This document shows positions 45,624 through 48,653 of a stretch of 64,000 bases of DNA, one piece after another. Positions within the stretch are counted from its first letter, which is position 1. Each line of letters opens with the position of its first letter. The stretch is taken from contig NZ_ADGX01000007.1 of NCBI RefSeq assembly GCF_000177675.1, positions 1 to 64,000 of the forward strand, given 5' to 3'. The position numbers and the translations under genes are program-made. The DNA comes from Parafrankia sp. EUN1f. Its GTDB lineage: Bacteria; Actinomycetota; Actinomycetes; Frankiales; Frankiaceae. A model generated the notes under the pieces. The model searched no databases. It saw only the letters and a program-made list of their open reading frames with translations, and was not told the origin of the DNA.

Positions 45624-46597
45624 GCACCGTGACCGGCCCCCACCCCACCGGCACCCACCCCGCCGCCACCGCCACCGCGCAGACCGGCACCGCGCAGACC
45701 GGCACCGCGCAGACCGGCACCGCGCAGACCGGCACCGCGCAGACCGGCACCGACGGCACGGTCGCCGGAACGGGCGAGGCCCCGCTCCCGGCTCGCACCG
45801 GTCGCGGGCGGTCCGCGGGCCGACGGGTCCTGAGCGCGGCGGTCGCCGTCGCCGTTCCGGCGGCTGTGATCGCGGTGCTGCTCGTGCTGTGGGAGCTCGC
45901 GATCGAGGCGTTCGACGTCAGGCCGTTCGTGCTGGCCAAGCCGTCCGCGATCTGGGACGCATTCGCCGAGAAGCCCGACGTCTACATCGAATACGGCTTC
46001 AACACGCTGCGCGAGGCCGTGCAGGGACTGGCCTTCGGCGTCGCCGTCGGCGTCGCCGTCGCCGTGGCGACCTTCCGGTCGAAGCTGCTCTCCGAGCTGG
46101 CGCGGGCCTACAGCGCGGCCCTGCTCGCCCTGCCGGTCGTCGCCGTGATCCCACTGTCGAACGTCTTCTTCGGGCTGCAGCCGGCGTCACGGGTGTTCGT
46201 CGTCGCCGTGGGCACCACACCGATCATGCTCACATACACGCTGACCGGGCTGAAGGCGACCGACGCCGGGCTCGCGGAGATGTTCCGCGCGTGCGCGATG
46301 CCGCGCTGGCGGTCGGTGCTCTCGCTGTTCCTGCCCTCCGCGCTGCCGTACTTCATCAGCGGCGTCCGGGTCGCGCTGCCCAGCGCGTTCTCCGTCGCCA
46401 TCATCGGCGAGTACTTCGGCGGCGAGCGCAACACGCTCGGCACCTACATCAAGACGGCAGCGGTGCAGTCCAAGGTCGCCGACCTGTGGGGCGCGGCGAT
46501 GACCGCCTTCCTCTTCGCCGTCGCACTGTTCGCCCTGGTCGCGCTCGCCGACCGGCTGCTGCTGCGCTGGCACCCGTCCCGGGCCCGCCGCGGCTGA
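45620..46597 (+). CDS. ABC transporter permease, SsuC/TauC type, with N-terminal AQTGT repeats
   Basis: A 325-residue intact permease of the nitrate/sulfonate/taurine class (helices from about residue 70; coupling motif near MPRWRSVLSLFLPSALPYFI). The N-terminus carries five AQTGT repeats encoded by a perfect 15-bp tandem array. The start overlaps the ATPase stop (ATGA-like). Its partners upstream are broken, so it has no intact ATPase in the window. Confidence 0.85.
   Translation: MSTVTGPHPTGTHPAATATAQTGTAQTGTAQTGTAQTGTAQTGTDGTVAGTGEAPLPARTGRGRSAGRRVLSAAVAVAVPAAVIAVLLVLWELAIEAFDVRPFVLAKPSAIWDAFAEKPDVYIEYGFNTLREAVQGLAFGVAVGVAVAVATFRSKLLSELARAYSAALLALPVVAVIPLSNVFFGLQPASRVFVVAVGTTPIMLTYTLTGLKATDAGLAEMFRACAMPRWRSVLSLFLPSALPYFISGVRVALPSAFSVAIIGEYFGGERNTLGTYIKTAAVQSKVADLWGAAMTAFLFAVALFALVALADRLLLRWHPSRARRG
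45676..45750 (+). repeat. Five tandem 15-bp repeats inside a permease gene
   Basis: GCGCAGACCGGCACC is repeated five times without a mismatch, keeping frame and encoding AQTGT. A likely length-variable array. Confidence 0.95.
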
Positions 46598-47072: not shown

Positions 47073-47123
47073 CGCTCCTTCGTCCGGCCGGTCCCGGCCC
47101 CCGCGGATCCTAATGATGTCGTG

Positions 47124-47345
47124 GGAGCCAGCCGTCCGGCAGACTCCCGATCGGTAGCCGCTGGCAGGTGAGCACTCGTGGGTCCTGGACTTCGAGTCCT
47201 GTTGAAAGACCGTGCCCCTGCCGGTTGGCCGGGAGAGTTGATCGCTGATGGGATGTCGTGCCCGCCCCTACGGCGTGAGCACTGTGTTCATTAGGTCGCT
47301 GACTGTTCTCCCGCGGGCTGCTCACGGTGATCGACACAGAGGGCG
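47124..47345 (+). ncRNA. Candidate IS110 bridge RNA
   Basis: This noncoding left end is where IS110-subgroup elements encode the bridge RNA that pairs with donor and target DNA. Seen: a small hairpin GGACT-TCG-AGTCC at 47187-47199; a GTGAGCACT direct repeat (47168-47176 and 47275-47283); and GGGATGTCGTG at 47250-47260, which equals the sequence obtained by joining the right end (GGGATGTC, 48589-48596) to the left end (GTG, 47121-47123). That is what a donor-recognition loop should contain. Ends and secondary structure are not determined. Confidence 0.55.
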
Positions 47346-47351
47346 GGAGAC

Positions 47352-48575
47352 GTGTTGCGACTGTTCGTGGGAGACGACTGGGCGGAAGATCACCATGATG
47401 TGGAGGTGATGGACGCCTCGGGCCGTCGGCTGGTCAAGGCACGGCTGCCCGAAGGCGTGGACGGGATCGCCCGCCTGCACGCCATGATCGGCGAGCATTC
47501 CGGGGACGATCCCGACGGCATCGAGGTGCTGGTCGGGATCGAGACCGACCGCGGCCCGTGGGTGGCGGCGCTGGTCGCCGCCGGGTACACGGTGTTCGCG
47601 ATCAACCCGCTGCAGGCGTCCCGGTTCCGGGCCCGGCACGCGGTGTCGGGCGCCAAGAGCGACGCCGCCGACGCGCACATGCTCGCGGACATGGTCCGCA
47701 CCGACGCCCACCAGCTGCGCCCGGTGGCCGGGGACACGGCCACCGCCGAGGCGGTCAAGGTCGTGACCCGCACTCACAAGACGCTGATCTGGGAACGGAC
47801 CCGTCATACCCAGCGGCTGCGGCACGCGCTGCGGGACTACTTCCCCGCCGCGCTGGTCGCCTTCGACGACCTCGACGCCGCCGACACTCTGGAGCTGCTG
47901 GCCAAGGCGCCCACCCCCGCGCAGGCCACCCGGCTGACGATCAGCCAGATCAGTGCCGCGCTGCGCCGTGCCCGCCGCCGCGACATCCCGGCGAAGGCGG
48001 CCGCGATCCAGGCCGTGCTGCGCGCGGAGCATCTCGGCCAGCCCGACGTCGTGACCGGCGCCTACGCGGTCTCGGTCCGCGCCCTGGTCGCGGTCCTGAC
48101 CGTGCTCGACGGGCAGGTCAAGGCCCTGCAAGGGCAGGTGGAGGAGCATTTTGGCCGGCACCCGGCCGCTGAGATCATCCGGTCCCAGCCCGGGCTCGGA
48201 CCGGTTCTCGGTGCCCGGGTGCTCGCGGAGTTCGGCGACGACCCCGACCGCTACACCACCGCCAAGGCCCGCAAGAACTACGCCGGCACCAGCCCGATCA
48301 CCCGCGCCTCCGGCAAGAAGAGAACCGTCGCGGCCCGCTATGTCCACAACGACCGGCTCGTCGACGCCCTCATGACCCAGGCGTTCTCCAGCCTCCAGGC
48401 ATCCCCGGGCGCCCGCGCCTACTACGACCGGCAACGAGCCCGCGGAGCCAGCCACAACGCCGCCCTGCGCCAGCTCGCCAACCGCCTCGTCGGCATCCTC
48501 CACGGCTGCATCAAGACCGGCAGCCCCTACGACGAGACGACCGCCTGGCCCTCCGCCGAACAGATCGCGGCTTGA
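47352..48575 (+). CDS. IS110 family transposase (DEDD recombinase)
   Basis: 407 residues. The RuvC-like DEDD domain contains VGDDWAEDHH, GIETDRG and KSDAADAHML, and the C-terminal Transposase_20 domain contains the expected RSQPGLGPVLGARVLAEFGDD with serine. A coiled-coil linker joins them. GTG start, with GGGAGA four to five bases upstream. No frameshift or stop, so the element may be active. Confidence 0.95.
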   Translation: MLRLFVGDDWAEDHHDVEVMDASGRRLVKARLPEGVDGIARLHAMIGEHSGDDPDGIEVLVGIETDRGPWVAALVAAGYTVFAINPLQASRFRARHAVSGAKSDAADAHMLADMVRTDAHQLRPVAGDTATAEAVKVVTRTHKTLIWERTRHTQRLRHALRDYFPAALVAFDDLDAADTLELLAKAPTPAQATRLTISQISAALRRARRRDIPAKAAAIQAVLRAEHLGQPDVVTGAYAVSVRALVAVLTVLDGQVKALQGQVEEHFGRHPAAEIIRSQPGLGPVLGARVLAEFGDDPDRYTTAKARKNYAGTSPITRASGKKRTVAARYVHNDRLVDALMTQAFSSLQASPGARAYYDRQRARGASHNAALRQLANRLVGILHGCIKTGSPYDETTAWPSAEQIAA

Positions 48576-48653
48576 CATGTCAGCTCCTGGGATGTCTTTC
48601 ATGCGCGCGCTCGGGAGCATTCCGCGCCGGCGACCGAGGCCGCGATCGAACAT

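What the first reader, a model, noticed from the sequence alone, without database searches (positions are those of the whole stretch)
47115..48596. IS110 leader contains an 11-mer matching the predicted excised-circle junction
GGGATGTCGTG at 47250-47260, inside the noncoding left end, equals the sequence made by joining the proposed right edge (GGGATGTC, 48589-48596) to the left edge (GTG, 47121-47123). IS110 bridge RNAs carry guides for the donor junction. Here the guide-like string is contiguous, whereas published donor loops split left and right guides, so the match could be partly fortuitous. The transposase looks intact.
Basis: partly seen in the sequence, partly recalled or inferred. Interest (0 to 1): 0.75.

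Follow-up and report, generated by a model that had tools for sequence, protein, structure and literature searches.

The report
IS110 element with standard bridge RNA
The window holds an intact IS110 jumping gene whose leader encodes a bridge RNA, the guide RNA that pairs with the element's own ends and with its landing site; the 11-letter match is real, but only its first 8 letters are donor guide, and the element's ends lie elsewhere than first proposed.

Summary
The 11-mer GGGATGTCGTG is at 47250-47260, but the edges used to explain it are wrong. An empty site in a same-genus genome and multi-copy relatives place the element at 47110-48595, with a shared CT core (47110-11 and 48596-97). The donor junction is therefore GGGATGT-CT-AATGATG. 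Within the 11-mer, GGGATGTC (47250-57) is the left donor guide: 7 nt of the right end plus the core C, the same span as in IS621. The trailing GTG belongs to the apical hairpin of the donor loop, and its match to the leader is coincidental. The other three guides were located: LTG 47178-86, RTG 47203-08, RDG 47288-94. They track the corresponding DNA across about 55 unique relatives far beyond shuffles; the donor guide does so in more distant IS110s. The fold is supported by compensatory changes, and the circle junction rebuilds TTGACA-N17-TCTAAT. This is an ordinary IS110-group bridge-RNA element: a new member of a known kind. In passing: the main subclade's guides spell the complement of a Shine-Dalgarno sequence, and 12 of 30 of its insertions lie just upstream of an ATG start, resembling IS900's known preference. 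Nothing was tested experimentally.

The parts
47110..48595 (+). IS110-group element (1486 bp with one copy of the CT core; second core copy at 48596-48597)
   Evidence: Ungapped empty site in L120; junctions of multi-copy relatives
47110..47111 (.). core dinucleotide CT, left copy
   Evidence: Empty site has a single CT
48596..48597 (.). core dinucleotide CT, right copy
   Evidence: Empty site has a single CT
47103..47109 (+). left target (LT) GCGGATC, host DNA
   Evidence: With the core CT pairs with LTG by 7 Watson-Crick and 2 wobble pairs
48598..48601 (+). right target (RT) TTCA, host DNA
   Evidence: With the core CT complementary to RTG TGAAAG
47112..47116 (+). right donor (RD) AATGA at the left end of the element
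   Evidence: With the core CT complementary to RDG; covaries
48589..48595 (+). left donor (LD) GGGATGT at the right end of the element
   Evidence: With core C identical to LDG; tracks LDG in distant IS110s
47121..47322 (+). predicted bridge RNA (5' end inferred from the -10 box; 3' end approximate, end of the closing helix)
   Evidence: Alignment A1 of 51 leaders: 26 of 46 pairs with changes on both sides, shuffled mean 10.0, slid versions at most 13
47124..47148 (+). 5' stem-loop of the bridge RNA (GGGAG..CTCCC)
   Evidence: Helices 1-2
47178..47186 (+). left target guide (LTG) GTGGGTCCT
   Evidence: Own vs shuffled pairing over 55 unique elements: 381/550 vs 266.2 +/- 8.7
47203..47208 (+). 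right target guide (RTG) TGAAAG
   Evidence: Own vs shuffled pairing: 367/440 vs 254.4 +/- 7.8, maximum 282 in 2000 shuffles
47209..47210 (+). handshake guide AC of the target loop, complementary to GT at 48594-48595
   Evidence: Sequence; role by analogy with IS621 (PMC11208158)
47250..47257 (+). left donor guide (LDG) GGGATGTC: first 8 nt of the reported 11-mer
   Evidence: Identical to LD plus core C; almost invariant in the near family, tracks LD in distant groups
47258..47260 (+). GTG, last 3 nt of the 11-mer: 5' arm of the apical hairpin of the donor loop, pairs with CAC 47280-47282
   Evidence: Helix 7: 97.1% of cells paired, one compensatory change at the next pair (L019, L112)
47288..47294 (+). 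right donor guide (RDG) TCATTAG
   Evidence: Own vs shuffled pairing: 379/495 vs 340.0 +/- 4.2; at the variable sixth base 100% own vs 44% other
47352..48575 (+). IS110 RNA-guided recombinase (407 aa plus stop), intact
   Evidence: PF01548 2.2e-36, PF02371 3.6e-13; NF033542 194 bits over cut-off 140; IS621 and ISCro4 structures matched
48572..48577 (+). -35-like box TTGACA at the right end; 17 nt from TCTAAT formed across the circle junction
   Evidence: same boxes with 17-nt spacing in 45 of the relatives tabulated

Best explanation
This is an intact IS110-group insertion sequence that moves by bridge-RNA-guided recombination. Shown from sequence: element 47110-48595 with a CT core, recombinase gene, and a structured leader RNA with a target loop and a donor loop. 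The LTG and RTG match the flanking target; the LDG and RDG match the element's two ends. Inferred by analogy with IS621: the element excises as a circle joining GGGATGT-CT-AATGATG, which rebuilds a promoter (TTGACA-N17-TCTAAT) driving the bridge RNA. The RNA holds the circle junction in its donor loop and a target such as GGATC-CT-TTCA in its target loop, and the recombinase exchanges strands next to CT. The reported 11-mer is the 8-nt left donor guide followed by the first 3 nt of the donor-loop hairpin.
For: Empty site and multi-copy junctions fix the ends. Guides pair with their own DNA much better than with that of other relatives: RT 367/440 vs 254 +/- 7.8, LT 381/550 vs 266 +/- 8.7, RD 379/495 vs 340 +/- 4.2, none of 2000 shuffles reaching any of them. 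LD/LDG vary together in distant IS110s, e.g. GGGACAC with GGGACAC and GAGAAT with GAGAAT (1 of 20000 shuffles). Fold: 26 pairs changed on both sides vs 10.0 shuffled and at most 13 slid. Guide order, strand and LDG length match the published IS621 scheme. Circle-junction promoter boxes at 17-nt spacing. Recombinase family and catalytic residues.
Against: In the near family LD and LDG hardly vary, so covariation there says little about LDG (435 vs 433.1). The single-sequence fold is no more stable than shuffles (z = -0.43). An identical but truncated left end elsewhere in the genome (L003) has a left flank that fits the LTG poorly. Shuffles ignore shared ancestry. [quoted passage not shown] No RNA or activity was measured.
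Confidence: 0.95

Rival explanations
1. One reading: the leader carries one contiguous 11-nt guide for the whole circle junction made from edges 48596 and 47121.
For: The 11 letters do equal that concatenation.
Against: The empty site contradicts the edges. The GTG is conserved in the leader where the left end has no GTG and pairs with CAC in a conserved hairpin. A separate RDG exists that covaries with the real left end.
Confidence: 0.01
2. The match between leader and right end is a chance or descent repeat (for example an old partial duplication of the right end) with no guide role.
For: Within the near family both copies are almost invariant, so covariation cannot separate the two.
Against: In IS110s of 31-43% protein identity both copies have changed together at the same place in the RNA. 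Length and position equal the IS621 LDG.
Confidence: 0.03
3. The element is a dead remnant in which the leader is preserved only by recent insertion.
For: Other copies in the same genome are cut off at contig ends, carry a stop (one TGA in C254) or are truncated (L003).
Against: This copy has an intact reading frame, catalytic residues, guides and ends, and its flanks are unbroken relative to the empty site.
Confidence: 0.05

Closest known systems
IS621 and the IS110-group bridge RNA systems (Durrant et al. 2024 PMC11208160; Hiraizumi et al. 2024 PMC11208158)
   Same: DEDD recombinase with catalytic Ser, bridge RNA in a long left end, 5' stem-loop then target loop then donor loop, LTG/RTG/LDG/RDG on the same strands, 8-nt LDG ending at the core C, CT core, promoter rebuilt at the circle junction, handshake guide after the RTG.
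   Different: Only distant protein similarity (52 bits in phmmer); leader sequence, target (TC-CT-TTC) and donor (GGGATGT-CT-AAT) differ; RDG is a contiguous 7 nt here, discontiguous in IS621.
seekRNA of IS1111/IS110 elements (Siddiquee et al. 2024, PMC11187229)
   Same: The same concept of a guide RNA from the noncoding region, upstream of the gene in the IS110 type.
   Different: IS1111 members carry the RNA downstream of the gene and have subterminal inverted repeats; not so here.
IS900 of Mycobacterium avium subsp. paratuberculosis (IS110 family)
   Same: Inserts at translation starts; motif CATGNNNNNNTCTCCTT (PMC8141618). The main subclade here prefers CAT-N(4-8)-TCCTTTC.
   Different: Sequence relationship to IS900 was not tested here; the window copy itself is not at a start codon.

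Membership tests
IS110 family, IS110 group (bridge-RNA recombinases) | DEDD (RuvC-like) recombinase plus Transposase_20 domain with catalytic Ser | tested here: met
   PF01548 and PF02371, NF033542 above cut-off, catalytic residues aligned with IS621
IS110 family, IS110 group (bridge-RNA recombinases) | Long noncoding left end, short right end (IS1111 is the reverse) | tested here: met
   Left end about 240 bp, right end about 20 bp
IS110 family, IS110 group (bridge-RNA recombinases) | Insertion without target duplication other than a 2-bp core | tested here: met
   Empty site with a single CT and no gaps
IS110 family, IS110 group (bridge-RNA recombinases) | Structured leader RNA with target loop and donor loop | tested here: met
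   Covariation-supported structure; Rfam gave no bridge-RNA match, so no curated-model test
IS110 family, IS110 group (bridge-RNA recombinases) | Guides complementary to target and donor, in the published order and strands | tested here: met
   for LTG, RTG, RDG; for LDG
IS110 family, IS110 group (bridge-RNA recombinases) | Promoter reconstituted at the circle junction | tested here: met
   TTGACA-N17-TCTAAT; sequence only
IS110 family, IS110 group (bridge-RNA recombinases) | RNA expressed and bound by the recombinase; RNA-guided recombination | not testable with these tools
   Needs RNA-seq and a recombination assay
IS1111 group | Guide RNA in the right end, long subterminal inverted repeats | tested here: not met
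   Right end is about 20 bp; RNA is in the left end

The most novel reading that the evidence does not exclude
The bridge RNAs of this actinobacterial IS110 subclade carry target guides fixed on the Shine-Dalgarno sequence (TC-CT-TTC is the complement of GAAAGGA). The element is thus RNA-guided to ribosome-binding sites in any host, and other IS110 lineages reach start codons with different guides. This would explain IS900's long-known preference for translation starts as RNA-guided targeting.
Probability: 0.5. Interest if true: 0.5.

Novelty: new member of a known kind. Interest (0 to 1): 0.3.

Why it matters
It shows that a donor-guide match can be read off raw sequence, but that the element's ends must be fixed from empty sites or multiple copies before junction matches are interpreted. 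It adds an actinobacterial bridge-RNA family with four legible guides and natural retargeting (TTTC, GACA, GCGC, TTGC and other right targets). Its main subclade appears aimed at Shine-Dalgarno sequences, which offers a testable mechanism for the old IS900 observation.

Tried and rejected
Direct repeat GATGTC at 47115-47120 and 48591-48596 as a target duplication: rejected, because it lies inside the true left end and relatives lack it. Rfam as a bridge-RNA test: no such match; only an Ms_AS-4 match inside the transposase gene. Single-sequence fold: not informative (z = -0.43). RNAalifold's pairing of the GTG segment with bases after the RDG: replaced by the apical hairpin, in which 97% of cells pair (a first version with one mis-indexed pair is). 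LDG covariation in the near family: not informative, so distant multi-copy IS110s were used instead. Antisense hed-like reading frame: the frame is exactly opposite the transposase codons, where stops arise only from rare TTA, CTA and TCA codons, so its length is expected.

Full report
What was checked first. The 11-mer GGGATGTCGTG is present once in the window, at 47250-47260. It lies in the noncoding leader of a 407-codon IS110-family transposase (47352-48575). The transposase has the catalytic residues seen in IS621 (D8/D9, E64, D104, D107, S320; alignment, positions).

Where the element ends. Copies in other genomes with unrelated flanks begin at CTAAT and end at GGGATGTCT. A same-genus genome (G003, locus L120) has the site without the element. 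The window's flanks joined with a single CT align to it over 515 bases, 497 identical, no gaps. The element is therefore 47110-48595, with a CT core shared by both junctions, and the circle junction is GGGATGT-CT-AATGATG.

What the 11-mer is. The leader and the right end share TGGGATGTC (47249-57 and 48588-96). GGGATGTC is 7 nt of left donor plus the core C, the same extent as the IS621 left donor guide, which is 8 nt and ends at the core C (PMC11208158). The following GTG pairs with CAC at 47280-82 in the apical hairpin of the donor loop; helix 7 has 97.1% of cells paired and one compensatory change at the neighbouring pair. Relatives keep GTG in the leader although their left ends have no GTG at that place.

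The other guides. LTG GTGGGTCCT (47178-86) pairs with GCGGATCCT of the left target (7 Watson-Crick pairs, 2 wobbles). RTG TGAAAG (47203-08) is complementary to CTTTCA at the right junction. RDG TCATTAG (47288-94) is complementary to CTAATGA at the left end. Across 55 unique elements each guide fits its own DNA far better than that of others: RT 367 of 440 pairs vs 254.4 +/- 7.8; LT 381 of 550 vs 266.2 +/- 8.7; RD 379 of 495 vs 340.0 +/- 4.2; none of 2000 shuffles reached any of these. Examples: CTTTCA with TGAAAG, CTGACA with TGTCAG, CTAGCGG with CCGCTAG, CTGTGTC with GACACAG, CTAATCA with TGATTAG, CTAATGG with CCATTAG. The shuffles do not correct for shared ancestry, but the number of independent target switches makes ancestry an unlikely sole cause.

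The donor guide itself hardly varies in the near family (435 of 440 vs 433.1), so more distant IS110s were fetched (31-65% protein identity, several copies each). There both sides change together: ATAGGGACAC with ATAGGGACAC, ATTGGGAAG with ATTGGGAAG, ATTGAGAAT with ATTGAGAAT. With windows set by a fixed anchor rather than by the match, the own-pair score is 93 vs 72.2 +/- 4.7 in shuffles (1 of 20000 as high); for seven distinct donor types it is 59 vs a mean of 47.1 (6 of 5040 permutations as high).

Fold and expression signals. The alignment of 51 leaders supports a 5' stem-loop, a target loop and a donor loop: 26 of 46 pairs have changes on both sides, against 10.0 +/- 2.1 in shuffles and at most 13 when slid. 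The fold of the single sequence is not exceptional (z = -0.43). The circle junction rebuilds TTGACA-N17-TCTAAT, and 45 of the tabulated relatives have the same boxes and spacing. IS621 was reported to form its bridge-RNA promoter this way (PMC11208158). The dinucleotide after the RTG (AC) is complementary to GT next to the core in the donor, like the handshake guide of IS621. In L084 and L102 the base after the RDG is U and the left target base is A, against G and C in most others; this is one suggestive compensatory case.

Classification. All sequence-level features tested for an IS110-group bridge-RNA element are met; the IS1111 group is excluded by the placement of the RNA. RNA production and activity are untested. 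It is a new member of a known kind.

Side result on targets. The main subclade's target TC-CT-TTC is the complement of GAAAGGA. Of 30 such insertion sites, 12 have an ATG with an open frame of at least 60 codons 4-12 nt beyond the AGGA on the opposite strand, and 16 have any start codon. Elements with other guides have 1 of 35 and 3 of 35 (Fisher P 2.8e-4 and 9e-5). Random flank positions give 4.4% and 16%. Other TCCTTTC sites in 462 kb of host-genus DNA give 1 of 16 and 4 of 16. Frames were not annotated genes, the pattern was noticed before it was tested, and selection against insertions in genes could add to the bias. Copies in several other lineages (G241a, G241b, G118a, G030b) also sit at ATG starts. 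IS900, another IS110-family element, is known to target translation starts (PMC8141618 citing Doran 1997). In the held library no paper linking IS900 to bridge RNA turned up. The window's own site is not such a case: its target is about 38 nt upstream of the NUDIX gene's start.

Noticed in passing
L002, L043, L052, L054, L058, L059, L061, L069, L074, L079, L090, L053, left junctions: Insertions of the TTTC-guide subclade often lie 4-8 nt from an ATG on the opposite strand, i.e. in a Shine-Dalgarno sequence; 12 of 30 sites vs 1 of 35 for other guides.
   Followed up: partly
47322-48578, minus strand: Long antisense reading frame exactly opposite the transposase codons, with AGGAG-N5-ATG in the right end (median 490 codons in relatives); reminiscent of IS900 hed, but expected from codon bias in GC-rich DNA.
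   Followed up: partly
48185-48266, minus strand: Rfam RF02464 (Ms_AS-4, actinobacterial sRNA) matches antisense to the transposase gene at 65.6 bits; the family may simply reflect conserved IS110 coding sequence.
   Followed up: no
L003 (G000:C376:4828-5149): Truncated copy, 322 bases identical to the left end, cut inside the transposase gene and next to a left flank that fits the target guide poorly.
   Followed up: partly
L036 1501-1558; L021 845-957: Partial left-end copies in same-genus genomes whose match to the element stops within the leader: bridge-RNA fragments.
   Followed up: no
L101 around 1124-1260: Plasmid copy preceded by a second right end and a short direct repeat of the target (CTGACAGGAAACCAC), suggesting tandem insertion.
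   Followed up: no
45668-45752: 15-bp tandem repeat (5.7 copies, 98% match) near the start of a permease-like frame, giving a TAQTG repeat at the N terminus.
   Followed up: no
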